Positions 12,571 through 63,738 of a stretch of DNA of 64,000 nucleotides are shown one piece after another. Under the pieces are notes generated by a model. It did no database searches, had not been told where the DNA came from, and saw only the letters and a program-made list of their open reading frames with translations. Position numbers and translations under genes: made by a program. How positions within the stretch are numbered: position 1 is the first letter of the stretch; every line of letters starts with the position of its first letter. The DNA lies in contig NZ_LNUT01000004.1 of the NCBI RefSeq assembly GCF_001512305.1, positions 1,039,757-1,103,756 on the forward strand, in the 5' to 3' direction. This stretch comes from Arthrobacter sp. EPSL27. GTDB lineage: Bacteria; Actinomycetota; Actinomycetes; Actinomycetales; Micrococcaceae.

Positions 12571-12581
12571 TGCCGGGTTAT

Positions 12582-44997: not shown

Positions 44998-45044
44998 GGT
45001 TCCTCCTGACCCTGGCGATGTTTCGTCCCGGTGACTCGTACTGC

Positions 45045-45644
45045 TCAGGCACTGAACAGCCGGGTGATGACGCCGGAGCTGAGGAGGATGAACAAACCCA
45101 GCCCGATGAACACCGCAGGGACCAGCCAGTGTTCGATCTTCTCGAGGGTCTCAGTGACTTTCGGGTGGGTTCCCACAACACGTCCCAGCGCGCACCAGAG
45201 GGCGACCAGGATGAGGAACACAATGATGGTTACCACGGTGTCCTGAGGCCGCATGGTGCGGAAGATCGGGGTGTAGATGGCGATGTTGTCCGCGCCGTTG
45301 GCGATGGTGATGCCGGCGACGCTGAGCAGGCCGACTGCGCTGACGGCCCCTTCCGCTTCCTCTTCCCCGCGTTTGCGCAGGAAACGGATCAGCCCGGCCA
45401 CCCCGATGAACAGGGGGACCAGGCCGAGCCAGCCCACCCATTCGTCCGGGACAAGCGCCAGCCCAAGGGCAGCCAGAACGCTGATGCCGACCAGGGTGAT
45501 GAATCCCAGATACTGCCCGCCGACGATCTCCCAGGGCCGGGGCCGCCCTTTCGCGGAGGCCAGGAACAGGACGGTCAAAACGACGATGTCGTCGATGTTG
45601 GTGGCGGCGAACATGGCCGCTGCGGCCGCGATGGTGGCAAGCAT
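45045..45644 (-). CDS. cadD: CadD-type cadmium resistance transporter
   Basis: 199 residues with five or six membrane helices. NIDDIVVLTVLF near the start and NGADNIAIYTPIF in the middle are the CadD signature. It confers low-level cadmium efflux, probably with the P-type pump. ATG at 45644 has GGAAAGGA seven bases upstream. The gene follows lspA and precedes the PaaK-like gene. Confidence 0.9.
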   Translation of the reverse strand: MLATIAAAAAMFAATNIDDIVVLTVLFLASAKGRPRPWEIVGGQYLGFITLVGISVLAALGLALVPDEWVGWLGLVPLFIGVAGLIRFLRKRGEEEAEGAVSAVGLLSVAGITIANGADNIAIYTPIFRTMRPQDTVVTIIVFLILVALWCALGRVVGTHPKVTETLEKIEHWLVPAVFIGLGLFILLSSGVITRLFSA

Positions 45645-45694
45645 GAGTGCATCCTTTCCAAGGCCAGCGCGGCCGGTGAAGGGCGGAAGAGGGC

Positions 45695-46201
45695 TTAGTC
45701 GCCGGTCCGTGCCCGCGGCGACAGCACGGTGCCGAGGACCAGGAGGGCTACTCCGGTGGTGACGAACACGTCGGCGAGGTTGAAGGTGGGAAACCAGCCG
45801 CTGTGGAGGTAGTCCACGACCCCTTGCCCGTCGAGCCTGTCGATGAAGTTCCCGACGGCGCCTCCGAGCAGCAGGGACGCTCCTGCCCGGGAGAGGCCGG
45901 TCATCGATGGGGCCGAAGAGACGGTGTACCAGATCAGGGCCGCAATGATCAGGCCGGTGGCGGCGATGACAATCCACGGTGCCAGGTCCGCGCCGAGGCT
46001 GAACGCGACACCGCGGTTATAGAGCAGCCTAATGTTGATCGGTCCCAAATCGGTCGTCGTGCCGGTGGAGAGCAGCGCTTCGGCTACGGCTTTGACAACC
46101 AGGTCGGCTGCGGCCAGGACGGCTGCCACCAGAAGCAGCACCGTCCTGGACCGTCGGGCCTGCCGGGCGGGCGCGTCCGGCACAGCGGTTTCGGCGCTCA
46201 C
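45695..46201 (-). CDS. lspA: Lipoprotein signal peptidase LspA
   Basis: 168 residues, four membrane helices. Catalytic aspartates are likely Asp121 (GNFIDRL) and Asp144 (FNLADVFV). LspA cuts signal peptides before the lipid-modified Cys. GTG at 46201 overlaps the cadA stop (GTGA). lspA-type genes occur inside metal operons in other bacteria (the pbr-type arrangement), where they may process metal-linked lipoproteins. Confidence 0.92.
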   Translation of the reverse strand: MSAETAVPDAPARQARRSRTVLLLVAAVLAAADLVVKAVAEALLSTGTTTDLGPINIRLLYNRGVAFSLGADLAPWIVIAATGLIIAALIWYTVSSAPSMTGLSRAGASLLLGGAVGNFIDRLDGQGVVDYLHSGWFPTFNLADVFVTTGVALLVLGTVLSPRARTGD

Positions 46202-48153
46202 GCTGCCGGTTCCAGCGCCGGGGTGGGCTTGGCGGCGTTGGACGTGGTCTTGCGGCTGATCCGGCCTGCCCTGACGCCGTTGGCGATCACGACGATTTCG
46301 GCCAGTTCGTGGATGAGGACGACGGCGGCCAGTCCGAGCATGCCGAACAGCGCCAGTGGTATCAGTACCGCGATCAGCAGCAGGGACAGGCCGACGTTCT
46401 GGAGCATGATGCTCCGGGTCCTGCGCGCGTGATCGAGGACCTGGGGAAGGTGGTTCAGGTCCTCACCCATCAGGGCGATGTCCGCGGTTTCGATCGCGAC
46501 GTCGGTGCCCATCGCACCCATGGCGATGCCGCTGTCGGCGGTCGCCAGGGCCGGGGCGTCGTTGACGCCGTCGCCGACCATGGCGGTGGGGGCACGGCCC
46601 TGGAGCGTGCGGATGATGTCTGCTTTGTCCTCGGGCCGGAGGTCGGCGTGGACCTCTGTGATGCCTGCGGCCTTACCCAGCGCTGTGGCCGTGATGAGGT
46701 TGTCTCCGGTGAGCATGGCCGTGGTGTAGCCGGAGGCGCTCAGCCGGGCAATGACTTCCCGGGCTTCGGGCCGCAGCTCGTCACGGACCGCGACAGCTCC
46801 GATGACCTGGCCGTCGTCCTCGATCAGGACGGCGGTTGCGCCGGCGTGCTGCATCCGCTCGACCTCGGCGGCCAGGGGGCCTGCGTCGATCCAGCCCGGC
46901 CGGCCGAGGCGGACGGTCCTGCCCTCGAGCAGGCCTGTCAGGCCTGCGCCGGGGACGGTGTCGACATCCGTGACTGCCGCCCGGTCCTCGGCGGCGGCGA
47001 GGATGGCGCGGGCTAGCGGGTGTTCACTGCGGGCCTCCAGGCTGGCAGCCAAAGCCAGGACGTGTTCCCTGGTGGCGGTTCCCGTCGCGGCGACCTCGAT
47101 CACGGCGGGCTTGTTCCGGGTGAGCGTTCCGGTCTTATCCAGCGCAATGGTGCGGATTTTGCCTAGGGTTTCCAGGGCGCCGCCGCCCTTAATGAGCACG
47201 CCGATGCGGCTGGCTGCACCGACGGAAGCGACGACAGTGACGGGGACGGAGATGGCCAGGGCGCAGGGCGAGGCCGCGACCAGGACGACGAGGGCGCGTT
47301 CGAACCACAGCAGCGGTTCGCCGACGATGAAACCGAAGACGATGATCAGGGCCGCGGCGATCAGGATGCCCGGGACGAGCTTCTTGGCGATGGAGTCGGC
47401 CAGGCGCTGGCCCGGGCCCTTGCGGGACTGCTCGGCCTCCACGATGTGCACGATCCGTGCCAGCGAGTTGTTCTCCGCTGTGCTGGTCACTTCGACCTCG
47501 AGCGGGCCGGTGCCGTTGATCGACCCGGCGTAGACCTCGCTGCCCGGCCCGGCTTCGACCGGGACGGACTCACCGGTCAGCGCCGACGTGTCCAGGGAGG
47601 TACGGCCGGTGAGGATCCTGCCGTCGGTGGCCAGACGTTCCCCGGGCCGGACAACCATCCGGTCCCCGAGGACGAGTTCTGCCGGGTCGACCGTGACCTC
47701 GGTGCCGCCGCGCAGGACGGTCGCCTCGGCCGGGACAAGGTCCAGCAGGGCGCGCAGGCCACGGCGGGTTTTCGCAAGCGAGTACTCCTCCAGGCCCTCG
47801 GAGATGGCGTAGAGGAAGGCCAGCATGGCCGCCTCCTCGAACTCCCCGAGGGCGACAGCGCCGACGGCGGCGATCGTCATCAGCGTGCCGACCCCGATTT
47901 TCCCCTTAACGAGGCGGCGGAGGGTGGAGGGAACGAACGTCCACGCGGCCACCAGGAGCGCCCCGATCTCCAACGGAAGCGTCAACCACTGCGGCGCTCC
48001 AACCAGCGAAGCGATCCACGCCGCGAGGAGCAGCGCACCGGAAACCGCGGCCGCCCGGACCTCGGTGACCTGCCAGAAACCTACGGCTTCCTCCGCTTCT
48101 TCGGATTCGCCGGTCTCTGTCTTCTCGTCGCTGCAGCCGCAGGCGTCGCTCAT
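46198..48153 (-). CDS. cadA: Cadmium/zinc-type P1B ATPase CadA
   Basis: 651 residues from ATG at 48153 (GGAG upstream; the open frame continues into cmtR in another frame). Motifs: SPCALAISVP in the metal-binding helix, DKTGTLT, TGES, HPLARAI and [11 protein letters not shown] short cysteine motif DACGCSDEK replaces the usual N-terminal HMA domain. It should pump Cd(II), Zn(II) or Pb(II) out. It is between cmtR upstream and lspA downstream with coupled stops and starts. Confidence 0.93.
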   Translation of the reverse strand: MSDACGCSDEKTETGESEEAEEAVGFWQVTEVRAAAVSGALLLAAWIASLVGAPQWLTLPLEIGALLVAAWTFVPSTLRRLVKGKIGVGTLMTIAAVGAVALGEFEEAAMLAFLYAISEGLEEYSLAKTRRGLRALLDLVPAEATVLRGGTEVTVDPAELVLGDRMVVRPGERLATDGRILTGRTSLDTSALTGESVPVEAGPGSEVYAGSINGTGPLEVEVTSTAENNSLARIVHIVEAEQSRKGPGQRLADSIAKKLVPGILIAAALIIVFGFIVGEPLLWFERALVVLVAASPCALAISVPVTVVASVGAASRIGVLIKGGGALETLGKIRTIALDKTGTLTRNKPAVIEVAATGTATREHVLALAASLEARSEHPLARAILAAAEDRAAVTDVDTVPGAGLTGLLEGRTVRLGRPGWIDAGPLAAEVERMQHAGATAVLIEDDGQVIGAVAVRDELRPEAREVIARLSASGYTTAMLTGDNLITATALGKAAGITEVHADLRPEDKADIIRTLQGRAPTAMVGDGVNDAPALATADSGIAMGAMGTDVAIETADIALMGEDLNHLPQVLDHARRTRSIMLQNVGLSLLLIAVLIPLALFGMLGLAAVVLIHELAEIVVIANGVRAGRISRKTTSNAAKPTPALEPAA

Positions 48154-48536
48154 TGTGCGTTCTCCTTCGTCAGGGCGGCGCCGGTGCTGCCGGTGCCGTA
48201 GTTCGGGCACAGGCTGACCGCGTTGCCGGTGGCGGCAAGCAGGACCTCGGCCTGGGCGAGCATGTCCATCAGTTCCGGGCGGGACAGTGAGTAGTACACG
48301 CTGCGGCCCTGCACCCGGCCTTCCACCAGGCCGCAATCGCGCAGGCATGCGACGTGGGCAGAGACGGTGGACTGGGCCAGGCCCAGCTCTGCAGTGAGGT
48401 CACCGACGCGGACCTCGCCGCCGGCCATGCGCTTCACGATGCTCAAGCGGGTCGGGTCCCCGAGGGAATGGAACAGCGCCGCGGCTGGACTGAGTTGGCT
48501 GCACGGATCAGCGGAAACCACAGGTTCAATCGTCAT
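48150..48536 (-). CDS. cmtR: ArsR/SmtB family metal sensor (CmtR-like)
   Basis: 128 residues. Winged helix with DLTAELGLAQSTVSAHVACL and the metal-binding CLRDCGLV in the recognition helix (Cys64, Cys68), as in mycobacterial CmtR. A third likely ligand is Cys110 (VSLCPNYG). It should leave DNA upon binding Cd(II) or Pb(II). ATG at 48536 lies in the operator palindrome CGTCATATGACG. Stop overlaps cadA start. Confidence 0.9.
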   Translation of the reverse strand: MTIEPVVSADPCSQLSPAAALFHSLGDPTRLSIVKRMAGGEVRVGDLTAELGLAQSTVSAHVACLRDCGLVEGRVQGRSVYYSLSRPELMDMLAQAEVLLAATGNAVSLCPNYGTGSTGAALTKENAQ

Positions 48537-54220: not shown

Positions 54221-56152
54221 TTACCCGGCCATGGTGAACGCCAAGTCCGCGAGCGACCACTCATCCGGTGGGCCCTCAAATGCCTCCCACGGATAGTCTT
54301 CACCAGGGGAGAGGAGCTCCGCGACGGTGTTGACGTTCTTGGACAGCCATTCCTTCCATAGGATCCGTTCGATCCGGTAGCGCTGCAGCTGCGCAGCGAC
54401 GGCTTCCAACACGCCGAAATGCTCGGCGAGATCCTTCAGCGACGTCGTAGCCACCACGGACCAAACCCTTGCGGTGTCGCGGGCGATCATATTCCACGCG
54501 GCCATCACCTCGAGCGCTTCAGTGACAGCTGTTCGGGAGAGCCTGGTCAGCTTCACTATCTCAGCCGTTGACAGGCCGGGAGAGTGCTCCAGCGCTTCGT
54601 AAACAAATGCCGCCGGCAGACCTAACTCTCTAAACACGGGGCGCAGGGCATGAATCTTTCCCTTGCGCCATGTCAGGTCCTCGGCCGCGGTTTTTACGTC
54701 CTCCGGGACGGTGAGCATGTAGAGGTCACCTTTAGTGCCCCGGCCCTGCTCAACCAGAGTCACGAGGGGATCGTCCTCTGCTCTCAACACCCTAAGGTGT
54801 GAGCCCACGGTGGTGTGGTCAAGGCCGGTGGCCACAGCGATGGACCGATCCCCGAATTCAATGAACCTGGACGCCGTCATGTGGGCTGCCTCGCCCAGCG
54901 CCCTGAGCACCATTCTGCGGGCCAGCCCCGTCCTGGATTCCGTGTAGCTCCGTTCCTTGAGTCTGAGTCCGTTCCTCCAGGAACGGATGAACCGCTGCTC
55001 AGCATCGGGATTCGATGAGAGCGGAGCCCCTTGTATTACAGGGGGCTGTGTATTTGGCTGGCTTGTGGGGGAATTACGGGCATTGTTCTTTCCCGCCCGT
55101 GTTTGGCGGTTTTTGCGCAGATAGGTGACTGCCTTCAGCCAGTCCCTTCGCAGTGCCGGAACCCGGTGGCGGGAAGCGTAACGGGCATAAAAGGAGGCCA
55201 AGCCGGGCCAAGTCCCCTGCATCATCCGGCGCTCGACCTCGGTCAGTTCCATGCCGGCGGCCGCGGCCCCCGTGACGATGGCTTGGCGCGCCTCGGAATC
55301 GGAGACATACCGGTTCGTGTCGTACAGCCCGGTTTGGGCCATCAGCTGCATCGTCCGGGACATCCGCCCAGTGGAGTGCTGGATCCGGGGCGCCTCTGCA
55401 GCCGGCGTAGTCGTCCCTTCGAGACGCAATGCCTTGACTCCGGCGATCTCCCCGGCGAGGTCGGCGTTCATGGCAGCCCAGACCTTGGCGGAGTTGGGCC
55501 TGCGGGCTATGTCGTAGGCCATGTTCAGGCTCATGGCGAGTTCCTGGTGGCCGCCGCGCTTGTGCGGGGAGCCTGGTGTACGCATGCAGCCATGCAGAAG
55601 GTTCTGGTGCGGGGTCTTGTCCAGGCTCCGGTACCGGGTGCCCAGAGCCTCGACAAGATCACGCGCTTCGGAGAAGGTCACCCGCTTCTCGAGCGGAATG
55701 TAGACGTGCCGGCCGCCATTGGGGGAGTAGTCCTCAATCCACCGCGCCCCGCAGGAATGTAGCCAGGTCTGGACGGCGCGGACGTCGGCTTCGACCCAGT
55801 CGATACCTTCGACCGAGGAGTCAAAGTCCAGGAATATCGCCTTGCACGTTCCGTCCTTCCCAAAGATCCGGACCGCCGCAGGGAACGTGGGGAGCGCCTC
55901 AGTGAGGGCTCGCTCGTGTTTCTGCGGATACGTCTTACCGGCATCCCTAGAGAGGCGGACCCTCGGCTGACCTGCGATAAGAGGAGCCAAGGCAGCCCAC
56001 GCCTGGGCGGGGCTGTTCGTGGAGGATGGCCCGTGCGACACGCCAGCGCCGTATTTGGCTGGCAGCACGCGGGCGTGCTGTTGTACGATGATTCTGTTCC
56101 TGTCCAGGGAATGACTGAGGGCCGATCTTGCAGGATCGGTTTTGCAACACAA
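54221..56152 (-). CDS. Primase-type replication initiation protein
   Basis: 643 residues in the longest frame; the start is uncertain (TTG at 56152; GTG at 56041 gives MSHGPSSTN...). The N-terminal half resembles an archaeo-eukaryotic primase: FLDFDSSVEGID, then SPNGGRHVYIPL, whose His is part of the active site. The C-terminal half has winged-helix stretches (LSTAEIVKLTRLSRTAVTEAL). This layout suits a plasmid replicase-primase. Its place beside parAB supports a role in replication. Confidence 0.75.
   Translation of the reverse strand: MCCKTDPARSALSHSLDRNRIIVQQHARVLPAKYGAGVSHGPSSTNSPAQAWAALAPLIAGQPRVRLSRDAGKTYPQKHERALTEALPTFPAAVRIFGKDGTCKAIFLDFDSSVEGIDWVEADVRAVQTWLHSCGARWIEDYSPNGGRHVYIPLEKRVTFSEARDLVEALGTRYRSLDKTPHQNLLHGCMRTPGSPHKRGGHQELAMSLNMAYDIARRPNSAKVWAAMNADLAGEIAGVKALRLEGTTTPAAEAPRIQHSTGRMSRTMQLMAQTGLYDTNRYVSDSEARQAIVTGAAAAGMELTEVERRMMQGTWPGLASFYARYASRHRVPALRRDWLKAVTYLRKNRQTRAGKNNARNSPTSQPNTQPPVIQGAPLSSNPDAEQRFIRSWRNGLRLKERSYTESRTGLARRMVLRALGEAAHMTASRFIEFGDRSIAVATGLDHTTVGSHLRVLRAEDDPLVTLVEQGRGTKGDLYMLTVPEDVKTAAEDLTWRKGKIHALRPVFRELGLPAAFVYEALEHSPGLSTAEIVKLTRLSRTAVTEALEVMAAWNMIARDTARVWSVVATTSLKDLAEHFGVLEAVAAQLQRYRIERILWKEWLSKNVNTVAELLSPGEDYPWEAFEGPPDEWSLADLAFTMAG
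56063..56143 (+). ncRNA. Candidate antisense RNA at the replication leader
   Basis: On the plus strand, hairpin CAGCACGC-GG-GCGTGCTG (56063-56080) is followed by a second, CCGATC-TTGCAG-GATCGG (56122-56139), with TTTT directly after it. This ends like a small RNA transcribed against the 5' region of the replication gene. No promoter is confirmed. Confidence 0.35.
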
Positions 56153-56261: not shown

Positions 56262-56495
56262 TTATGAGGCTATGCGGATGGGCAGTTCCTCCTGGTGCGC
56301 GAAATGATTCAGCAACGCCAGATCTTCGCGAAGCGACCGGTCGACGGCAGATGAAACGTAGTCAGTGACCGTCATACCTTTAGCGGCAGCGATCATTTGA
56401 ACGTCCTCCGCGGTCTTGGCCTGCGTGCGGAAGCCAATGTATTTGCGGAGGCCCTTGCTGGGCCGTCCGCCTCCACGATTGATTACTGCGCTCAT
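56262..56495 (-). CDS. Small DNA-binding-like plasmid protein
   Basis: 77 residues from ATG at 56495 (AAAGGA seven bases upstream). Pattern RPSKGLRKYIGFRTQAKTAE, then helices ending VTDYVSSAVDRSLRED, which resembles a ribbon-helix-helix fold. It precedes the replication gene on the same strand, so it may regulate it. Family uncertain. Confidence 0.6.
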   Translation of the reverse strand: MSAVINRGGGRPSKGLRKYIGFRTQAKTAEDVQMIAAAKGMTVTDYVSSAVDRSLREDLALLNHFAHQEELPIRIAS

Positions 56496-56957
56496 GGTCA
56501 TGTCCTTTGAATCTCGCACAACCTAGGGTTGTGGCTGCTTCATCGCTGGGTGCTATTTGCAGTCGATCACTGTGAGGTTTCTGTTTACAGCTATCGACTG
56601 AATCGAAAATAGCACTGCCTTCAGGGGCATTCGGGGATTTGTTTACAGAAAACGGTCCCGCGTGTCGTTCCGCACTGATCTCGCGCCCTGTCGATCCGCG
56701 CTGAAACCCTACCTCCCCGGCGGTGTCGCTGCCCACCGTGCCGACATGAGCCCGCCTTCGGCGGCCCCGCGGAACTGAAAGAACGCCGTCGGGACTGCTG
56801 CGTTTGGACGCAAGTTGTGGGCGGCGTACATATACCGGTGTCGACCACGGACGGCCCTCCTTCTCGTGACGATGACAAGCACTTCTGAGTCCCTCTTGAT
56901 AAGGTTGGGCCCGTTCTACCCGGGAAATGGTGAACCCTAAACCAGACTAAAACATGT
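56496..56957. other. Non-coding region with short repeats, possible origin
   Basis: About 460 bases without a supported gene. TGTTTACAG occurs at 56583-56591 and 56640-56648 in the same direction, 57 bases apart (start to start). Only two copies, so iteron status is uncertain. The region is less GC-rich than its surroundings. Confidence 0.4.
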
Positions 56958-56973
56958 TTGAAACATGTTTCAA
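56958..56973. promoter_or_regulatory. Operator TTGAAACATGTTTCAA, copy 1
   Basis: Perfect 16-bp palindrome, preceded by a half-overlapping AAACATGTTT. It lies ahead of the ImmA-type gene. The same 16 bases recur at 60140-60155 just after the operon's regulator gene, which suggests one regulator binds both. Confidence 0.8.
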
Positions 56974-57015
56974 GCTAGTCTATCCCCATTGAAGCTATCG
57001 AAGGGTCATGTTGTT

Positions 57016-57519
57016 GTGACGCAAGCTCTGCGTTCCTTGCCTGTAACTACGTCTGAACAGGCCTTCCGCGATGCGTCCGGTGCATTCGCCGCATTGGAAC
57101 TGCCAGGCGGCCTGACTTTGAGTCTGCTCCTGGGCGTCATCGAAGACATCCGCGGCAAGCGGATCCGGATTCGTGCCACCGAGAAGTTGGTCGGCACATC
57201 CATCTGTGGTCTGTGGCTGCCGGGGGCGAAGATCGAGTGGGTGTTTCATCCCCCGACGCCCTGGGAGCTGCAGCGTCAGCAATTCATTCTTCACGAACTT
57301 GCTCACATGGTCCTGGGCCACGACACAACGCCCGGTGCGGGTACCGTCTTGAAGAGCGGCTTTCGTGGCCTGTCTCCGGAGATTGTACGCAGGGCCCTCA
57401 TGCGGACCGAGTTCCGGACCTTGGAAGAGGCCACGGCCGAGTACCTTGCCGATCTCATGGCTGAGGCCTTGAGGGCGGGGCCTGGTGAACCGGGCGCCTT
57501 CGAGGACGTCTTCGGCTGA
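57016..57519 (+). CDS. ImmA/IrrE-type metallopeptidase
   Basis: 167 residues from GTG at 57016 (GAAGGG upstream). The frame opens at ATG 56965 inside the operator, so that start is less likely. Zinc motif HELAHMVLGH and later RTLEEATAEYLADL, the glutamate ligand region. ImmA-type proteases cleave a paired repressor; the regulator at the end of this operon is the natural candidate. Stop overlaps the next start. Confidence 0.82.
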   Translation: MTQALRSLPVTTSEQAFRDASGAFAALELPGGLTLSLLLGVIEDIRGKRIRIRATEKLVGTSICGLWLPGAKIEWVFHPPTPWELQRQQFILHELAHMVLGHDTTPGAGTVLKSGFRGLSPEIVRRALMRTEFRTLEEATAEYLADLMAEALRAGPGEPGAFEDVFG

Positions 57520-58505
57520 TGGAGATCATCGCAGCGGGGCTGATGATCAGCCTGACGCTCGTCGTCATCGCATCACGCGGCCAGGGTAAAGACACCAGCA
57601 TTCTATGGGCCTCGGTGCTGATTTCCGTGTCCATGGTCCTCAATATTAACCCTGTTTACCTGCTCGCAGACGGGTGGGTCGGCGGGAGGAACTATGCGGA
57701 CTTGGGAGCAAACCTTCTCCTGCTGGCGGGTGTCTATTTTCTAGCCCGGGCTATTCATCGGGCCGCACAGCCGGCATCCTACGGCAGGAGATCCTCGTAC
57801 GAGGTTGCGGCCAGAGCAGGACTTGTGGGCACGGCGATTTCGGCAACCATCCTGTTCATCTTGATCGATGCTCCAGTTTCGTCGACGTCGTTCATGCGGG
57901 ACTACGGAGGGCAGTGGGCGGCGGCCCTGTATTCGGCCGGACAATATTTCTACATAGGCGCGGTCATGGCCGCAGCAGGCTGGACCTGCGTGCGTTTTCG
58001 GAAGGCTTGGAGCACCGGAATCTACACCGTAGCGTTCGCGCTCGTTGGCTTGGGATGCCTGTCCGCCGTTCTGTTCGTCGTTGATGTGCTCGTACTCGAT
58101 GCACTTCACGTGCTCGGTATGGTTGAGGCACTCTCCGCTTTGTCCGGGATCTATACGGTGTTGAATTCGACTACGTTCCTTTTTCTTTGCACCGGTATGG
58201 CTTTGCCTCCCGCCAGCCGCAAAGTCACTGCCATCTACGAAACGGCCCGAACCAGCTCAGTGCTTGCGGGCCTGGAACCTGTCTGGGGACAGGCAGTGGC
58301 CGGAAATGCCGGTCTGACGCTGGACCTTGGTGTGGTTCCGAAACGCCCGGACCGCAGGCGCAGCGAGCTGCACCGCATGATTGTGGAGATCCAGGACTCC
58401 TTGGCCCGGGATCCCGAAGTAAGAGACAGAATTGGCGCCGAGGGCCTGGGAAAACTAGCCAGCGCATCCGACCACCTCGAGCGGCTGTCGTGGCGTCCCC
58501 GCTGA
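57519..58505 (+). CDS. Multi-pass membrane protein (MAB_1171c/DUF6545-like)
   Basis: 328 residues with about seven membrane helices in the first 230 (MEIIAAGLMISLTLVVIASR, ANLLLLAGVYFLARAI, GTAISATILFILID and others), then a cytoplasmic part ending EGLGKLASASDHLERLSW. It resembles actinobacterial membrane proteins named MAB_1171c, which are often encoded with ImmA-type and XRE genes. Function unknown. The start overlaps the ImmA stop. Confidence 0.7.
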   Translation: MEIIAAGLMISLTLVVIASRGQGKDTSILWASVLISVSMVLNINPVYLLADGWVGGRNYADLGANLLLLAGVYFLARAIHRAAQPASYGRRSSYEVAARAGLVGTAISATILFILIDAPVSSTSFMRDYGGQWAAALYSAGQYFYIGAVMAAAGWTCVRFRKAWSTGIYTVAFALVGLGCLSAVLFVVDVLVLDALHVLGMVEALSALSGIYTVLNSTTFLFLCTGMALPPASRKVTAIYETARTSSVLAGLEPVWGQAVAGNAGLTLDLGVVPKRPDRRRSELHRMIVEIQDSLARDPEVRDRIGAEGLGKLASASDHLERLSWRPR

Positions 58506-59656
58506 AGGCTGTTGCCTGGAGCGGCTTACTTGGTGCGGCGGGCGCCCTCGCCGGTGCGGCATGGGCCGCCCGTCAGGCGACTTCAGCGACGAACAGACGC
58601 CGCTATGACATCGTCCCTTTGGCAATTTCCGATAACGAGATCGAGCTCCCGGCCACGAGACACACGCTGGCGCCTGGGCAGTTCGGCCTGCAGCTCTCGA
58701 CAGGCGGCCCTCCGGCCGTCATCGGTCCGGTCATATCCGCCCGTGCCGGCAAAGTCACACGGGGCCTCCTTCATCGGCCCGCGGGCCTGTCCCTGGAGTC
58801 GAGGGGAAGGTGGAGTGGCATTGTCTCGGTCGATCCATCGTCCGTTGCCGCTGACGTGGTCGAGACTTTTGTCGAGACAGCTCTCGGCCCAGCCCCTGCG
58901 TGGATGATCGACCGGGGAACTGGCCGCTGGGCCATTCATGTCCATGGGCAAGGAAGTGCCCGGGCGCAGACGCTGCGTGGGGTTGAGAGTGCATCGCGTG
59001 TAGGACTCAGCTCATTGGTCATCTCATATCGCAATGACGGCGAGGGCCCTCGCTCAGGGGACGCTAGATCGCACTTGGGCGAATCCGAGTGGCGTGATCT
59101 AGAAGCAGCTCTTCGGTTTGTTGCGGAGCGCGGTGGAACTGAATGTGTGGTGTTCGGCTGGTCACTCGGGGCAACGATGGCTCTAAATACAGTGCAGCGG
59201 TCGTCGTTGGCAGAGATGATCAAGGGCCTCATTATGGTCGCGCCGGTATTGGTCTGGGAGGACGTGCTGCGTGCCAACGCCCGCCATCAACGCTGTCCAC
59301 GACTCCTTGGCTCACTCATAGCCCGACTTCTGGCGCGCAGGGGATTCAGCAGACTGGCCGGCCTCGAGGGTCCGTTGGAGGTGCGCTGTCCTGACCGGGC
59401 CAGATTCAAGGGGGCCCTGAGTATCCCGGTCCTGATCCTCCACAATAGGAATGACTGGTCCGTTCCTTTTGAAACTTCCGCTCGCTTCGCGCGAGCACAT
59501 AAAGACCGGATCGAACTCGTGGAGTTCGACTGTTCCGGACACACACAAGAATGGAATTCCGACCCGGTAGGGTGGAATCTAGCTGTCCGCCGCTGGTACG
59601 AATATTGGTTCCCGCCGGGCTCGGCCGGAGAACAAGCTGCGGCAAACAGCGAATGA
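58490..59656 (+). CDS. Alpha/beta hydrolase
   Basis: 388 residues; GTG at 58490 overlaps the previous gene by 16 bases. An N-terminal hydrophobic stretch (LLGAAGALAGAAWAAR) may anchor it. Likely triad: Ser in GWSLGAT, Asp in HNRNDWSVP, His in DCSGHTQEW. Substrate unknown. It lies between the membrane protein and the regulator in a tightly coupled operon. Confidence 0.82.
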   Translation: MASPLKAVAWSGLLGAAGALAGAAWAARQATSATNRRRYDIVPLAISDNEIELPATRHTLAPGQFGLQLSTGGPPAVIGPVISARAGKVTRGLLHRPAGLSLESRGRWSGIVSVDPSSVAADVVETFVETALGPAPAWMIDRGTGRWAIHVHGQGSARAQTLRGVESASRVGLSSLVISYRNDGEGPRSGDARSHLGESEWRDLEAALRFVAERGGTECVVFGWSLGATMALNTVQRSSLAEMIKGLIMVAPVLVWEDVLRANARHQRCPRLLGSLIARLLARRGFSRLAGLEGPLEVRCPDRARFKGALSIPVLILHNRNDWSVPFETSARFARAHKDRIELVEFDCSGHTQEWNSDPVGWNLAVRRWYEYWFPPGSAGEQAAANSE

Positions 59657-60132
59657 AATTGGATGGGGTTGAATTTATGGTTGGCGGTGACAGTCCCCGC
59701 GATCGGCTAGAGCGGGCGGAGACCCTTGCTCGCAAGGTGAACCTCCTACTGGACGTCGTGGTAGCCGAAGGCGGAGAACCCTATGAGTTCGCCGACATCC
59801 AGGCAGGCGTGCGCGAAAACGGGTACGAGCTTTCTCGAACGCGCTGGTGGCGAATTCGCACCGGTGAGTCGCCCGATACCGTCCCCAAAGAAGCCCTGGT
59901 CGCGATGGCCAAATTCTTCAACGTGGAACCGGCATACCTGACCGATGAATCCGGTGAACTCCCGGAACGGATTGAGCGGGAGCTGCAGCTCCTGAAGAAG
60001 ATGCGCCGGAACAAGCTGAAGAACATCGCGGCCCGAACTCTCGGCGACATCGACATTAAGACCCTCGAGGCGATCAACGCACTCCTGGACGATGTGGACG
60101 CCTACGAAAGCAACGACTCCGAACAGGACTGA
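59653..60132 (+). CDS. XRE-like regulator of the ImmA operon
   Basis: 159 residues. Helical N-terminal half with RENGYELSRTRWWRIRTGES, then PKEALVAMAKFFNVEPAYLTDE, like XRE repressors linked to ImmA proteases. A helical C-terminal half follows. The ATG at 59653 overlaps the hydrolase stop; ATG at 59677 has a better ribosome site (GGGG). Predicted to bind the two TTGAAACATGTTTCAA sites. Operator binding is inference. Confidence 0.78.
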   Translation: MKLDGVEFMVGGDSPRDRLERAETLARKVNLLLDVVVAEGGEPYEFADIQAGVRENGYELSRTRWWRIRTGESPDTVPKEALVAMAKFFNVEPAYLTDESGELPERIERELQLLKKMRRNKLKNIAARTLGDIDIKTLEAINALLDDVDAYESNDSEQD

Positions 60133-60139
60133 ATCATGG

Positions 60140-60155
60140 TTGAAACATGTTTCAA
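60140..60155. promoter_or_regulatory. Operator TTGAAACATGTTTCAA, copy 2
   Basis: The same palindrome as at 56958-56973, eight bases beyond the regulator stop, with a degenerate CATGGTT half upstream. It may control the adjacent region or help autoregulation by looping. Confidence 0.78.
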
Positions 60156-60248
60156 TCCTGTTATCGTGGACATGTGCCCACCACGATAAGTCGTACGACC
60201 CGCCGCCGAGCACCGGCGTACGGCCGCCCCGCCCCGGGGCGGTCATGG

Positions 60249-60563
60249 TCACAGGCCTTCGACATAACTGATGTACTCCTGGGTCAACTCTCGGACACGA
60301 GAGGATTGAACCATATAGACGACATCCTTGCCGTGGCGCATACCTGCCGGAGGATCGGTCTGCACCAGACCCGCCTCGGCGAGAAAATCGAGGTGGCGGT
60401 TCAGGCTTGGTCGGCTGATATCCACCGCAGCCTGCAGTCGCCCAATGGTCGATGGGCCAAGCATCGACAGGCGGCGCAGGATATCTACCCGGGCACGGTT
60501 GCCCATGAGACCGATTGCCACCTCAACTCCGGGCGGCAGTTTGGGTCGAATCAAGCTCGGCAT
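60249..60563 (-). CDS. ArsR-like winged-helix regulator
   Basis: 104 residues from ATG at 60563 (frame open to 60596). Helix-turn-helix GPSTIGRLQAAVDISRPSLN and wing DPPAGMRHGKDVVYMVQ. No metal-binding cysteine is visible, so it probably senses another signal or none. It is divergent from the conjugation operon, with a TTACTAA/TTAGTAA repeat between them. Likely a transfer repressor. Confidence 0.78.
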   Translation of the reverse strand: MPSLIRPKLPPGVEVAIGLMGNRARVDILRRLSMLGPSTIGRLQAAVDISRPSLNRHLDFLAEAGLVQTDPPAGMRHGKDVVYMVQSSRVRELTQEYISYVEGL

Positions 60564-60620
60564 GGATCCATCTTGCCTGACGCAATGACGAACCAATGCT
60601 TCTTTCGCCGCCTCACTCTA

Positions 60621-60643
60621 TTACTAAGCAAAAGAGTTAGTAA
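60621..60643. promoter_or_regulatory. Inverted repeat between regulator and transfer operon
   Basis: TTACTAA, nine bases, TTAGTAA: a 7-bp inverted repeat 22 bases before the first conjugation gene and upstream of the ArsR-like gene. Likely operator of that regulator. Confidence 0.65.
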
Positions 60644-60664
60644 CAGTCCGATTCTGTGGCCGGC

Positions 60665-61741
60665 ATGAAGCCGACGGGACTGTTGATCTGCACTGCGATT
60701 ATCGTGCCGGCGATCTTCCTGGGTCTGGTCCTGTCGATCGTTCTGCTCTTCGAGCCGACTCCGGATCCCGCCGATTGCGGCCCCGCCGTGTCCGTGTCGA
60801 TGAGCGACGACACCAAGGTCGACGGATACTCCACTGAGCAGCTGACGAACGCTGCAGCGATCATAAATGCCGGTAAGACCCTGAACCTATCGGCCAAGGG
60901 CCAGATGATCAGCATGATGGCGGCCCTGGGGGAGTCCGGCCTGCGCGTTCTGGACATCGGCGACGGGGCAGGTCCGGATTCCCGGGGTCTGTTTCAGCAG
61001 CGGGATAACGGCGCCTGGGGTTCCTACGCGGACCGCATAAGCCCGACCATCAGCGCGGTCAACTTCGTGAGGGCCCTGCAGAAGGTCGACGGCTGGGAGC
61101 TGTTGGAACCGAGCCTTGCCGGTAACAAGGTCCAGCGCAACGCCGACCCGTACCACTACCAGAGGTACTGGCCTGAGGCCGTCAAACTCGTTCAGGCGCT
61201 CTCGAACTCGAAGTTCTCCCTGCAGGGCAGCGACTGCGCCATCCCCGGACAATCCGGCGCGGGGGATGACTACCCGTGGAAGAACTCTCCGACCTGGTTG
61301 CAGATCGGTGCGAACGCGGCCAGCACGTCCCCGCTGGGCATGTACTACCGCGAGTGCGTGGACTTCGCCCTGTGGCGGGTGAACCAGCAGATGGGTTCAA
61401 CCGGCGCACCGTTCAAGTTCCTCAACGGCACGTTCCGCCCGGATGGGCAGGGCCTCGGCTCGGCCCTGACGTGGAAGGCCGGCTGGGATGCCAAGGGCTG
61501 GCCCGCAGGCAGCACGCCCCGGGTCGGTGCCGTTGTCTGGTACGCACCCGGGGCCGGGGGAGCGGACCCGAACTTCGGCCACGTCGCCGTAGTCAAGGAA
61601 GTCAAAGACAACGGCACCTACGTCGAAGAGGGCTACAACGGCAACCCTGCCCCGGCGGACCACAGCTACTACACCCGGACAGTGACCAACTCTGTCCCCT
61701 CAGCTTTCCTGTACCTGCCCACCCAAGAGGAGAAGAAGTGA
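60665..61741 (+). CDS. Conjugation peptidoglycan hydrolase with CHAP domain
   Basis: 358 residues. N-terminal membrane anchor (LLICTAIIVPAIFLGLVLSI), a lytic-transglycosylase-like part (AALGESGLRVLDIGDGAG, GLFQQRDNGAWG), then a CHAP domain with YYRECVDFALWRV (catalytic Cys) and NFGHVAVVKEV (His). It opens the wall for the transfer channel. The ATG at 60665 or GTG at 60656 is the start. It is the first gene of the operon. Confidence 0.85.
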   Translation: MKPTGLLICTAIIVPAIFLGLVLSIVLLFEPTPDPADCGPAVSVSMSDDTKVDGYSTEQLTNAAAIINAGKTLNLSAKGQMISMMAALGESGLRVLDIGDGAGPDSRGLFQQRDNGAWGSYADRISPTISAVNFVRALQKVDGWELLEPSLAGNKVQRNADPYHYQRYWPEAVKLVQALSNSKFSLQGSDCAIPGQSGAGDDYPWKNSPTWLQIGANAASTSPLGMYYRECVDFALWRVNQQMGSTGAPFKFLNGTFRPDGQGLGSALTWKAGWDAKGWPAGSTPRVGAVVWYAPGAGGADPNFGHVAVVKEVKDNGTYVEEGYNGNPAPADHSYYTRTVTNSVPSAFLYLPTQEEKK

Positions 61742-62256
61742 AAAAGCCCGTGACCTTGATCGGTGTGGCGCTGCTCTGCGTTTCGTGCGCACCGGCAGGC
61801 AACACCACGGCAGCGCCGTCGGCATCAGCGGCCGCCAGCCCCATTTCATCCGCGCCGGTCTCGCTGAGCGCCAACAGTGGACCCCAGGCGCCGGGCGGCA
61901 CTATCCCCGCCACCATCGGCGTTACCTGGGATCAGGCCAGCAAGGACGAAGCCATGCACGTCGCAGAGAACGCTATGACGGACTTCGCCCGCCCCGCCGT
62001 GGAGGACAAGCAGTGGGCCAATGACCTGGCCCGCTGGCTGACCCCGCAGGCCACCGCCGACTACTCGGCAGTGGACCCGGCCAACATCCCCGCATCCCGC
62101 GTCACCGGGGCCGCCACCCTAAGCGTCGATGAAACCAACGGCTTCGGCGTCATGGCAGCGGTCCCCACAAACGCCGGGACCTACACGGTGCAGCTGCTCC
62201 GCACCGGCAAGGACGCCCCCTGGAAGGCCAACCGCCTCACCCCGCCCTCGTCCTAA
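61738..62256 (+). CDS. Conjugation-associated lipoprotein
   Basis: 172 residues. GTG at 61738 overlaps the CHAP gene stop, with GAGGAGAAG upstream. The signal peptide ends LCVSC (lipobox), then an Ala/Ser linker and a folded part VTWDQASKDEAMHVAENAMT to TYTVQLLRTGKDAPWKANRL. It resembles small lipoproteins of actinobacterial transfer operons; exact role unknown. Confidence 0.72.
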   Translation: MKKPVTLIGVALLCVSCAPAGNTTAAPSASAAASPISSAPVSLSANSGPQAPGGTIPATIGVTWDQASKDEAMHVAENAMTDFARPAVEDKQWANDLARWLTPQATADYSAVDPANIPASRVTGAATLSVDETNGFGVMAAVPTNAGTYTVQLLRTGKDAPWKANRLTPPSS

Positions 62257-62295: not shown

Positions 62296-63738
62296 ATGGG
62301 CACTACACCAACCGAAGTCATGGCCTTTCCCAACATCCGCGCCATTGTCCGGGACAACGGCACCGCCGAGGTCGTCGTCGCGGGCAACTCCCGCATCGTC
62401 CCTGGCGGAGACTCCGTGCAGGAACTCCGCAGCAACGCCCTGGCCCTCATCGTGGGCGAAGCACAGACCCTCCAGCGCCCCGTGCGGGTCCGCATCGAGG
62501 ACCCCGAAGGGCACGGCGAACTCATCGTCCACCCGGACAACAAGATCGAATCCGTCTCCTACGAGCCCGCTCCGGCCCGCCGCCGGGCAGAAGCCCCCGA
62601 GACCACACCTGCGAGCGTAGCGCCGGCCGTCATTGATACCGTCCCCGCACCCGCACCGGAGCCTGCGGCCGCTCCTGCCACTGCCACGGCAGCATCGGTG
62701 GACGCCCGACCGTGGCCGCCTGCCCCCGCGACGGCCACCCCGGAACCGCAGACAGCTGCCGTTGTTGAGGAAGCCGCTCCGATCCGGCGCAGCCTGAAGG
62801 AAACCTCGTTCCTGGTCAGCGCCCCGGTGCTGGAACCGGCTACACAGGGCTGGCGCGGAACACTCACGCGACTGGGGCTCCGGATGGATCCCTCGGCGGA
62901 AGAACTCACCGAACGCGAGGACATCCGCACGGTCAGCCAGCACTGGCCCGGCCCCCGGACGATTGCGGTGGTCAACCGCAAGGGCGGGGCGAATAAGACC
63001 CCCACCGTGGTCATGCTCTCGGCCATCCTCGCCCGATACAGCGGCGCGGCCACGGTCGCGTGGGACAACAACGAATCCCAGGGCACCCTCGGCTGGCGGA
63101 CGGAAAAGGGTTCCCACGACCGCAGCGTCCTGGACCTGATCGACGCCTCCACCGAACTGCTCTCCCCGTCCACAAACGCGGCCGAAATCGCCAAGTTCGT
63201 CCACCACCAGACCGCCGACAAATTCGACGTCCTGCGCTCGGATGAAAACGAGGAAGGCGACCATGAAGTCACGGCCGAGGAAGTCGACATCGCCCATCAG
63301 GTGCTCACCCGCTATTACCGGCTCGTGGTCATGGATTCGGGCAACACGGCCAGGGCCGCGAATTGGCGGCGGATGATCGACCACACCAACCAGCTCGTGG
63401 TCCCGGTGACAGCCATTGAGGACCGCGCAGAAGCCGCACGTCTGACGCTGCAGACCCTGGAATCCCGCGGCGGCCATGACGCGGAGCTGGCCCGCAACGC
63501 CGTTGTCATCGTCTCGGAGTCCACCGACGCCAAGCGCAGCATGAGCGGCGAGGCGCTGAAGCGGGCCAAGGACGAGGCGCGGCGGATTGCTGACGGCTTC
63601 GCCCCGTTCGTCCGGGCGGTCGTCCGGATTCCTTACGATCCGGCCCTGGTCAACGGACCTATCCGCTATGAAGCCCTCCAGCCCGCCACTCAGCGGGCAT
63701 GGCTGGCGGCCGCGGCCGCCGTCGCTGCCGGCTTCTAA
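62296..63738 (+). CDS. ParA/MinD-like ATPase of the transfer operon
   Basis: 480 residues. A folded N-terminal part (AIVRDNGTAEVVVAGNSRIV), a Pro/Ala linker of about 90 residues, then an SRP/MinD-type ATPase: Walker A NRKGGANKTPTV, and RLVVMDSGNTARAANWR. It lies between transfer genes, so it probably serves conjugation or positioning of the channel rather than partition. Confidence 0.78.
   Translation: MGTTPTEVMAFPNIRAIVRDNGTAEVVVAGNSRIVPGGDSVQELRSNALALIVGEAQTLQRPVRVRIEDPEGHGELIVHPDNKIESVSYEPAPARRRAEAPETTPASVAPAVIDTVPAPAPEPAAAPATATAASVDARPWPPAPATATPEPQTAAVVEEAAPIRRSLKETSFLVSAPVLEPATQGWRGTLTRLGLRMDPSAEELTEREDIRTVSQHWPGPRTIAVVNRKGGANKTPTVVMLSAILARYSGAATVAWDNNESQGTLGWRTEKGSHDRSVLDLIDASTELLSPSTNAAEIAKFVHHQTADKFDVLRSDENEEGDHEVTAEEVDIAHQVLTRYYRLVVMDSGNTARAANWRRMIDHTNQLVVPVTAIEDRAEAARLTLQTLESRGGHDAELARNAVVIVSESTDAKRSMSGEALKRAKDEARRIADGFAPFVRAVVRIPYDPALVNGPIRYEALQPATQRAWLAAAAAVAAGF

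What the first reader, a model, noticed from the sequence alone, without database searches (positions are those of the whole stretch)
56958..60155. ImmA, membrane protein, hydrolase and XRE regulator between identical operators
Four overlapping genes make one operon, flanked by two exact copies of TTGAAACATGTTTCAA. A protease and a repressor that it may cleave, plus a membrane protein and a hydrolase, look like a signal-to-response module: sensing at the membrane, repressor cleavage, and hydrolase activity. Similar clusters occur in actinobacteria but, to my knowledge, have no defined role. This is the best candidate here for an undescribed system.
Basis: partly seen in the sequence, partly recalled or inferred. 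Interest (0 to 1): 0.72.

Follow-up and report, generated by a model that had tools for sequence, protein, structure and literature searches.

The report
Swappable membrane-to-protease switch controlling conjugation
On a family of soil-bacterium plasmids, a four-gene cassette (membrane receptor-like protein, protease, enzyme, DNA-binding regulator) sits between two copies of its own DNA switch, one of which lies in front of the DNA-transfer genes; whole cassettes with different enzymes and matching switches replace one another at this spot, so it looks like a signal-operated, exchangeable control for plasmid spread.

Summary
Four overlapping genes (ImmA-type protease, 7TM protein related to MAB_1171c, membrane-anchored alpha/beta hydrolase, EspR-like regulator) lie between two exact TTGAAACATGTTTCAA palindromes, the only two in the 4.18 Mb genome. 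Related conjugative plasmids carry the cassette between the replication gene and the T4SS (tra) operon; five whole plasmids searched hold just two operators each, at the cassette's ends. Operator 2 overlaps a promoter-like sequence reading into tra. In locus L073 the backbone is 73-81% identical to the window's, but the whole cassette is foreign (26-38%) with another enzyme, and both operators differ together. Best reading: a receptor-protease-repressor switch for conjugation, the enzyme making or destroying the receptor's ligand. Operators and target are well supported by sequence; binding, cleavage, ligand and enzyme role are inferred. The 7TM protein is predicted GPCR-like, not significant by Foldseek E-value. 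It works like ICEBs1 ImmA/ImmR but with another sensor and repressor. No paper on it was found in the searches made.

The parts
56958..56973 (.). operator 1 (TTGAAACATGTTTCAA), overlaps the putative -35 of the cassette promoter; weaker copy at 56947-56962
56981..56986 (+). putative -10 (TATCCC), 17 bp after TTGAAA; not uniform among relatives (absent as TANNNT in L003, L054, L119)
   Evidence: inference from the aligned stretches
57016..57519 (+). ImmA/IrrE-type metalloprotease (HExxH: H93, E94, H97 and E138/E142 invariant), single domain; longest ORF would start at 56965
57519..58505 (+). 7TM protein related to the MAB_1171c family, conserved cytoplasmic C-terminal LHRxxVEIxD motif (D293 invariant)
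58490..59656 (+). alpha/beta hydrolase with N-terminal hydrophobic stretch and conserved S225, D322, H351
59653..60132 (+). EspR-like HTH regulator
60140..60155 (.). operator 2 (exact copy); weaker copy at 60129-60144
60162..60167 (+). putative -10 (TATCGT) 16 bp after TTGAAA; TANNNT at the same place in 16 of 16 loci with this operator pair
60174..60668 (+). putative leaderless ORF (GTG exactly 6 nt after the -10), antisense to the arsR-like gene; its TGA overlaps an ATG of the first tra gene (ATGA)
60249..60596 (-). ArsR-like winged-helix regulator, opposite strand
60665..61741 (+). CHAP-domain protein, first tra gene (longest ORF from 60656)
61738..62256 (+). small tra gene, lipoprotein-like by eye
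62296..63738 (+). ParA-like tra-operon protein
56262..56519 (-). NikA-like small protein, divergent from the cassette (Pfam match weak, E 0.14)
54221..56152 (-). replication-type protein with HTH and weak primase match; left neighbour of the exchange site

Best explanation
The cassette is a self-regulated switch for plasmid conjugation. The EspR-like regulator binds two identical operators, one at its own operon's promoter and one at the promoter of the tra (T4SS) operon, and keeps both low. The 7TM protein senses a small, probably lipophilic molecule and passes the signal through its cytoplasmic tail to the single-domain ImmA protease, which cleaves or inactivates the regulator and releases both promoters. 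The enzyme (here the hydrolase) makes or removes the ligand, so the cassette reads donor density or the presence of plasmid-free cells. The tra transcript runs antisense over an arsR-like gene and may silence it. Shown from sequence: the cassette, the flanking operators, their exclusivity, their change with regulator type, the promoter-like architecture towards tra, cassette exchange. Inferred: DNA binding, direction of regulation, cleavage, ligand, enzyme role.
For: Operators: exactly 2 per replicon, at the cassette's ends, in the window genome and in 5 of 5 whole plasmids. Of 29 conjugative-plasmid-type loci examined, 24 carry a clear flanking pair, 2 (one locus fetched twice) a degenerate pair, 3 near-identical ones none. 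Operator type goes with the regulator's helix in the loci listed: RTRWWRIR with GAAACATGTTTC, RARW(Y/H)YMR with TAGACATGTCTA, RSRWAYMR with TGGACATGTCCA, RTRWSLLK with CACACATGTGTG (exceptions below). Four such motifs (up to 1 mismatch): 93 hits in 116 kb of cassette edges against 17 in 2.58 Mb elsewhere (related and duplicate loci, some sites counted under two motifs, motifs chosen from these loci). Output: TANNNT plus NTG 6 nt later after operator 2 in 16 of 16 loci with the GAAACATGTTTC pair; the ORF's stop overlaps a CHAP start in 8 of 16. Cassettes away from tra genes: one exact site in the genome, at the cassette, in 8 of 9 genomes searched; the ninth, tra-linked G136, has two one-mismatch sites flanking it and one elsewhere. 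Exchange: L073 versus window, backbone 73-81% identical, cassette 26-38%, other enzyme. Sensor: 7TM model, pLDDT 90.9; all 50 rows of the structural second look are GPCR or GPCR-like. Protease: best structural matches IrrE 9.6, PprI 9.1, CapP 7.7. Regulator: profile match to EspR, E 9e-14. ICEBs1 precedent for ImmA releasing conjugation genes (passages read).
Against: No binding, cleavage, ligand or transfer data. EspR itself is known as a nucleoid-associated regulator that can activate (recalled), so the sign of regulation is open. GPCR-like similarity is by prediction: Foldseek E 0.045 is not significant, its top 50 also hold archaerhodopsin and TRPV5, and helical bundles can reach Z 14 by chance. 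For ImmA, Foldseek found nothing at E 0.001 and Pfam scores under its cut-off. Three tra-linked Cryobacterium loci show no pair. A further 32 loci with a CHAP-type hit but no tra ParA hit were not examined for pairs. Helix-operator exceptions: L038 (RARWSYMK) has a TGGACATGTCCA-type site, RSRWSYIL loci share that type, many loci carry two regulators, and loci without a hit were not listed. In PAP2-type cassettes away from tra the only operator lies after the regulator gene, where no target was identified. The looser scan found an edge site in only 71 of 109 dereplicated loci, and in few class-wide ones. 35 of 166 loci have none of the three modelled enzymes, some at contig ends. The 7TM protein also occurs on 5 of 16 plasmid records not typed as conjugative.
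Confidence: 0.55

Rival explanations
1. Immunity-region reading: the cassette mainly sets plasmid identity (repressor/operator specificity, superinfection immunity or entry exclusion), as in prophage immunity regions; the membrane protein and enzyme alter the envelope to exclude related plasmids rather than signal.
For: Whole-cassette exchange with matching operators at a fixed site is also what immunity regions do.
Against: Cassettes occur away from tra genes with a single exact operator; the pair 7TM + ImmA is kept in 71 of 80 loci fetched through the 7TM protein, mostly its stronger matches, which pure immunity would not need.
Confidence: 0.15
2. Nutrient or xenobiotic response: the membrane protein is a transporter (NCBI's name for the family), the enzyme a catabolic step, and conjugation is only coupled to substrate availability.
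For: NCBI names the family 'putative transporter'; the enzymes are hydrolases, oxygenases and phosphatase-like proteins; several of the plasmids come from nicotine- or pesticide-exposed hosts.
Against: Predicted 7TM bundle with a conserved cytoplasmic tail; loop charges weakly fit N-out/C-in; all 50 rows of the structural second look are receptors or receptor-like; enzymes of very different chemistry go with the same protease and regulator families.
Confidence: 0.13
3. The ImmA/XRE pair is a toxin-antitoxin or stress module (as such pairs were once classed, recalled) that stabilises the plasmid; the palindromes only autoregulate it.
For: A comparative study of TA and related mobile stress systems mentions XRE and IrrE (PMC2701414, seen only in the search listing).
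Against: The second operator lies in promoter-like architecture towards the tra operon; the ImmA protein has the IrrE-type protease fold and motif.
Confidence: 0.07
4. The EspR-like protein is an activator or architectural protein at both promoters, and ImmA acts on something else.
For: EspR relatives bind as higher-order oligomers and can activate (recalled); tandem operator copies 11 bp apart.
Against: The palindrome overlaps the putative -35 at both promoters, a usual place for a repressor.
Confidence: 0.1

Closest known systems
ICEBs1 ImmR/ImmA (RapI-PhrI) conjugation switch of Bacillus subtilis
   Same: ImmA-type protease and a HTH repressor that controls its own promoter and the conjugation genes; external signal input (passages of PMC8014075 and PMC6540685).
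   Different: The likely sensor is a 7TM membrane protein instead of a cytoplasmic Rap protein with a secreted peptide; repressor is EspR-like; an exchangeable enzyme is part of the cassette; operators come as a matching pair flanking the cassette.
pCF10 sex-pheromone system with PrgY (Enterococcus)
   Same: Plasmid-encoded membrane protein proposed to modify or degrade the donor's own pheromone, so that donors do not self-induce (passage of PMC6540685); a possible model for the enzyme's role here.
   Different: Peptide signals, PrgX receptor in the cytoplasm (same passages); no sequence relation was tested.
IrrE/PprI-DdrO and CapP-CapH protease-repressor pairs
   Same: Protease fold (structural match); release of a HTH repressor by cleavage (recalled).
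   Different: IrrE and CapP chains are longer and carry further domains (target lengths 240-278; domain roles recalled); here the protease is a single domain of 167 aa and the likely sensor is the adjacent 7TM protein.
EspR of Mycobacterium tuberculosis
   Same: The regulator's profile matches EspR over 110 positions, E 9e-14.
   Different: EspR acts at many chromosomal sites (recalled); here two sites per replicon.
MAB_1171c family (NF042915)
   Same: Same membrane family by profile: 84 bits for the window protein, 200 and 219 bits for two relatives in other cassettes.
   Different: Window protein is under the 100-bit cut-off. The only paper found treats MAB_1171c as a transporter; its knockout made about half the biofilm (passages).

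Membership tests
ImmA/IrrE metalloprotease (M78) | HExxH zinc motif plus downstream Glu | tested here: met
   H93, E94, H97, E138, E142 invariant in 27 aligned proteins
ImmA/IrrE metalloprotease (M78) | fold of the family | tested here: met
   IrrE 3dti Z 9.6 (107 residues, 3.2 A), PprI 9.1, CapP 7.7 are the top rows; Foldseek alone gave none at E 0.001 but ranks members of the same fold group first; model pLDDT 75
ImmA/IrrE metalloprotease (M78) | Pfam PF06114 gathering score | tested here: not met
   11.4 bits against 22: a divergent member by sequence
ImmA/ImmR-type conjugation switch | regulator binds its own and the transfer promoter | tested here: inconclusive
   operator-like pairs at both places and nowhere else; binding not tested
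ImmA/ImmR-type conjugation switch | repressor cleaved by ImmA | not testable with these tools
   needs a bench assay
ImmA/ImmR-type conjugation switch | RapI/PhrI (RRNPP) signal input | tested here: inconclusive
   none of the four cassette proteins has a TPR/RRNPP match; the rest of the plasmid was not searched
EspR family | sequence profile match over the HTH and following helices | tested here: met
   E 9e-14, profile positions 14-123
MAB_1171c family NF042915 | curated cut-off 100 bits | tested here: not met
   84.4 bits, E 7.7e-24, residues 20-296; relatives in other cassettes 199.8 and 218.8 bits
GPCR fold | 7TM bundle of receptor topology, N-out, C-in | tested here: inconclusive
   AlphaFold2 pLDDT 90.9; class T GPCR 7xp6 Z 15.5, 226 residues, 4.9 A, all 50 rows GPCR, GPCR-like or a designed GPCR-like fold; Foldseek E 0.045; loop charges; no sequence match
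Type II toxin-antitoxin | toxicity of one partner relieved by the other | not testable with these tools
   no test run

The most novel reading that the evidence does not exclude
A previously undescribed class of bacterial chemical signalling in Actinobacteria: GPCR-like 7TM receptors wired to an ImmA protease and an EspR-like repressor, each paired with an enzyme of its own (hydrolase, PAP2-like phosphatase, MpaB oxygenase, possibly P450) that makes or destroys its ligand. Conjugative plasmids exchange whole receptor-enzyme-regulator-operator cassettes like pherotypes, giving orthogonal communication channels that decide when the plasmid transfers.
Probability: 0.35. Interest if true: 0.92.

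Novelty: new variant of a known kind. Interest (0 to 1): 0.74.

Why it matters
pAO1, one of the plasmids with this cassette, is a conjugative nicotine-catabolic plasmid with reported transfer at 1e-3 to 1e-2 per donor (PMC10494377, passages read); no regulator of its transfer was named in those passages. If right, the cassette explains when Arthrobacter-type catabolic plasmids spread, gives a testable regulator-operator code, and identifies receptor-like bacterial 7TM proteins whose ligands can be hunted through their partner enzymes. Relatives of the 7TM protein (not in every case the whole cassette) were found in 39 of 394 genomes sampled across the class, some of 6-10 Mb.

Tried and rejected
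Tried without result: PADLOC and PHROGs gave nothing strong for the four proteins, best E 0.023 and 9e-5. Sequence search of the PDB with the ImmA and 7TM profiles gave no credible relative. Viral contigs gave only 3 weak (26%) ImmA matches, so a phage link was not pursued. The 14-base even-palindrome scan missed the odd-centred operators of four PAP2-type plasmids; they were found by comparing the two ends by eye and by shared words. A strict PAP2 motif pattern fitted only 4 of 24 slot ORFs; reading the sequences showed S-x-H and SRxxLxxH or close variants in the rest. Pfam saw PAP2 in 4 of 6 tested, only L073 over its cut-off, so 'PAP2-like' rests on my own HMM for most. No test of any enzyme's substrate was possible. 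A paper on palindromes bound by XRE regulators held no ACATGT motif and no Arthrobacter (term search in the text).

Considered and rejected: palindromes as chance repeats; palindromes as insertion-target repeats of a transposon (they vary with the regulator and lie at putative -35 positions); hydrolase as the effector (its slot is exchangeable).

Counts to read with care: the unnamed-genome loci and the named loci overlap (for example L042 = L171, L054 = L119), so raw counts contain duplicates. From the 69 places I fetched 40, and 40 from the 53 places, mostly the stronger ones; many unfetched weak ones may be a shorter 7TM family without ImmA, as L070, L072, L076 and L077 are. The other 80 loci were fetched by ImmA, the best 80 of 165, so presence of the fetched gene is by design. 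The tree was built on 109 rows at under 90% identity out of 152 rows with ImmA and a long enough 7TM match. The arrangement tally uses genes within 3.5 kb of the 7TM gene and my own HMMs.
Full report
WHAT IS THERE. Between 56958 and 60155 lie four overlapping genes on the + strand bounded by two exact copies of TTGAAACATGTTTCAA. Allowing 3 mismatches, the window has 3 matches where 0.09 are expected; none of 100 shuffles had as many. In the whole 4.18 Mb genome these are the only two copies, even with one mismatch in the inner 14 bases. Each has a weaker copy 11 bp upstream.

THE FOUR PROTEINS. (1) ImmA: HExxH and two downstream glutamates are invariant in 27 relatives. Pfam's M78 model scores under its cut-off (11.4 against 22 bits), but the AlphaFold2 model (pLDDT 75) matches IrrE (Z 9.6), PprI (9.1) and CapP (7.7) best; Foldseek alone gave no match at E 0.001, its first rows being an M. 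tuberculosis regulator, CapP and PprI. It is a single domain without the further regions of IrrE (recalled). (2) Membrane protein: profile match to NCBI's MAB_1171c family, 84 bits against a cut-off of 100. The model is confident (pLDDT 90.9, pTM 0.85): helices fitting seven TM spans, a long last span running into the cytoplasm and two more C-terminal helices that carry a conserved motif, LHRxxVEIxD. All 50 rows of the structural second look are GPCRs, GPCR-like receptors or a designed GPCR-like fold, best Z 15.5 over 226 residues at 4.9 A. Foldseek's own best E of 0.045 is not significant, its top 50 also hold archaerhodopsin and TRPV5, and helical bundles reach Z 14. Loop charges weakly fit N-out, C-in. 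(3) Alpha/beta hydrolase with an N-terminal hydrophobic stretch and a conserved S225-D322-H351 triad. (4) HTH regulator: its profile matches M. tuberculosis EspR at E 9e-14.

WHERE IT SITS. A DNA search of the plasmid collection gave 10 records, all typed conjugative, from Arthrobacter and Paenarthrobacter, including pAO1. A protein search with the 7TM protein gave 16 records: 11 conjugative, 4 non-mobilizable, 1 mobilizable. I fetched five records. In four the cassette lies between a divergent replication-type gene and the tra operon that begins with a CHAP or M23 gene; in the fifth, pAO1, the record's start cuts off the tra side. In this genome the element is 148.9 kb long.

CONSERVED MODULE, VARIABLE ENZYME. 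The 7TM gene was found in all 80 ImmA-fetched loci; ImmA was found beside it in 71 of the 80 loci fetched through the 7TM protein, which were mostly the stronger matches. The enzyme slot holds the hydrolase in 89 loci, MpaB/Lcp-type oxygenase in 14, a PAP2-like membrane protein in 19, none of these in 35 (some at contig ends); 9 have only 7TM-like genes. Pfam confirms MpaB in 3 of 3 tested and sees PAP2 in 4 of 6, once over its cut-off. In class-wide loci without these, neighbours include cytochrome P450 (2 by Pfam, three more in the same BLAST cluster), amidohydrolase, a beta-lactamase-like protein, an unrelated hydrolase, and FAD oxygenase-like genes on the other strand; those links rest on neighbourhood alone. 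Gene order varies (HTH first, last or inside) while partners stay. On a tree of 109 7TM proteins the hydrolase label needs 2 changes (shuffled mean 36.5), MpaB 2 (9.7), PAP2 8 (17.7), none 9 (25.2); the three enzyme classes without 'none' need 2 in all. So enzyme class follows receptor clade, though inheritance and near copies alone can cluster labels. The label 'tra ParA gene in the locus' needs 8 changes (no shuffles made).

OPERATORS. Whole-record searches gave exactly two sites, at the cassette's ends, in 4 of 4 hydrolase-type plasmids (the reversed control gave 0 in four of five records and 1 per strand in the other) and in the MpaB-type plasmid, where the motif is TTAGACATGTCTAA instead. 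Among 29 conjugative-plasmid-type loci examined: 16 carry the GAAACATGTTTC pair; L006 and L057 (MpaB) the TAGACATGTCTA pair; L071 (PAP2-like) a CACACATGCGTG pair; L160 a TGGACATGTCCA-like pair; L068, L073, L074, L075 (PAP2) odd-centred CTGAAA..TTTCAG-type pairs, some copies imperfect; L042 and L171, the same locus, a degenerate pair; L166, L170, L181 (Cryobacterium, near-identical) none. A further 32 loci with a CHAP-type hit but no tra ParA hit were not examined. So when the cassette type changes, both operators change together. The regulator's recognition-helix sequence goes with the operator type, also in cassettes away from tra, with exceptions such as L038, and with many loci that hold two regulators; loci without a hit were not listed. 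Four motif types with up to one mismatch: 93 hits in 116 kb of cassette edges, 17 in 2.58 Mb elsewhere (loci related and duplicated, some sites counted twice, motifs drawn from these loci). A looser scan on 109 dereplicated loci gave 1.73 sites per kb at edges against 0.27 elsewhere, with at least one edge site in 71 of 109; groups with few or none include HTH-ImmA-TM (4 of 13) and HTH-ImmA-TM-PAP2 (1 of 8). In nine genomes chosen for two of the types, eight have one exact site, at the cassette; the ninth, tra-linked G136, has two one-mismatch sites flanking the cassette and one elsewhere. Other one-mismatch sites (5, 5 and 3 per strand, 1 in G117) were not examined.

THE SECOND OPERATOR POINTS INTO TRA. 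In 16 of 16 loci with the GAAACATGTTTC pair, operator 2 is followed at a fixed distance by TANNNT, with the three middle bases varying, and by an NTG start exactly 6 nt later, the mark of a leaderless transcript in Actinobacteria (that mark is recalled). The pattern was the one I searched for, but the fixed position and the way it varies were not imposed; the 16 include near copies. The ORF (128-205 aa) runs antisense over an arsR-like gene; in 8 of 16 loci (window, L003, L054, L118, L119, L120, L121, L123; L054 and L119 are one locus) its stop overlaps an in-frame start of the CHAP tra gene as ATGA, TGATG or TAATG. L127 has such an overlap with a different ORF; in L005 and L007 the CHAP start lies inside it (L004 is cut); in L122 and L124-L126 it ends before CHAP. 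I read this as a transcript that crosses arsR in antisense, kept open by translation, and enters tra. In L006 and L057 operator 2 lies about 40 bp after the regulator and just before tra. At operator 1 the -10 is less uniform.

EXCHANGE. Against the window, L073 has ParA-like 81%, CHAP 79%, Rep 73% identity, like true relatives, but ImmA 27%, 7TM 26% (187 columns aligned), HTH 38%, and a PAP2 enzyme instead of the hydrolase. L124 shows the reverse on the tra side: ParA 33%, CHAP 49% (174 columns), while Rep is 74% and the cassette 63-80%. That is how exchangeable, mutually insulated channels would look; an immunity region would look similar.

HOW IT MOST LIKELY WORKS. Repressor at two promoters; a 7TM receptor activates a protease that has no sensor of its own; the protease removes the repressor; transfer genes come on; the enzyme makes or removes the ligand. 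The logic copies ICEBs1 (ImmR repression, ImmA proteolysis, signal input; passages read). The enzyme could act like PrgY of pCF10, proposed to modify or degrade the donor's own pheromone (passage). I put about 0.8 on the two-operator control of tra, 0.55 on ImmA acting on the regulator under the 7TM protein, 0.45 on the enzyme acting on the ligand (judgement).

LITERATURE. Searches: MAB_1171c (1 paper, passages read), DUF6545 (none), ImmA with conjugation/Arthrobacter/plasmid/XRE, GPCR-like with Streptomyces/bacterial, pAO1 with conjugative, EspR with Arthrobacter/conjugative/T4SS, quorum sensing with conjugative plasmid/actinobacteria/ImmA, DUF2236 with IrrE/XRE, pAO1 T4SS. Passages were read in PMC8707978, PMC10494377, PMC8014075, PMC6305408, PMC12565409 and PMC6540685; no paper was read whole. 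Nothing seen describes this system, but the listings were capped and subscription papers are mostly not held; the work on Arthrobacter transfer modules cited as Mihasan and Brandsch 2016 (named in a passage) did not come up and was not read.

Noticed in passing
G000:C4:956252-1105291 (the window's 1-64000 is part of it): The element that holds the window is 148.9 kb with an identical 125-base repeat at both ends and a 100-N gap at the right one, between genes that by eye look like chromosomal tyrS and tlyA: most likely a circular plasmid placed into a chromosomal scaffold by the assembler.
   Followed up: partly
G000:C2 (L229, L076): A second related T4SS region (SCO6880-like, 85% identical to the A. 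sulfonylureivorans plasmid) lies on the 188-kb contig C2; on the same contig, beside Rep/CHAP/ParA-type tra genes, a shorter 7TM-like gene stands without a detected ImmA.
   Followed up: no
window 60621-60643: The arsR-tra intergenic stretch holds an inverted repeat TTACTAA..TTAGTAA; L124-L126 have a longer one in the same stretch. It may be the ArsR-like protein's own operator, a second layer of tra control (read by eye).
   Followed up: no
L059, L060, L064, L065, L066: In PAP2-type cassettes away from tra the CACACATGTGTG site lies 49-120 bp after the regulator gene, in some facing a convergent gene; its target is unclear.
   Followed up: no
window 25633-30432 (-): 1599-aa ORF whose N-terminus looks by eye like restriction-type enzymes, next to a 293-aa ORF; possible defence locus, not searched.
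   Followed up: no
window 11209-15134 and 43630-48521: Metal P-type ATPase regions each next to a phenylacetate-CoA ligase-like gene, shared with many Arthrobacter plasmids.
   Followed up: no
L038, L039, L040, L044, L048, L052, L056: Most MpaB-type cassettes shown are followed by a 352-aa protein resembling DUF4192 proteins by eye; L052 keeps that neighbour though no MpaB was detected.
   Followed up: no
L166, L170, L181: Cryobacterium cassettes have a long inverted repeat GCTGGACATGCCTAG..CTAGGCATGTCCAGC upstream instead of a flanking pair.
   Followed up: no
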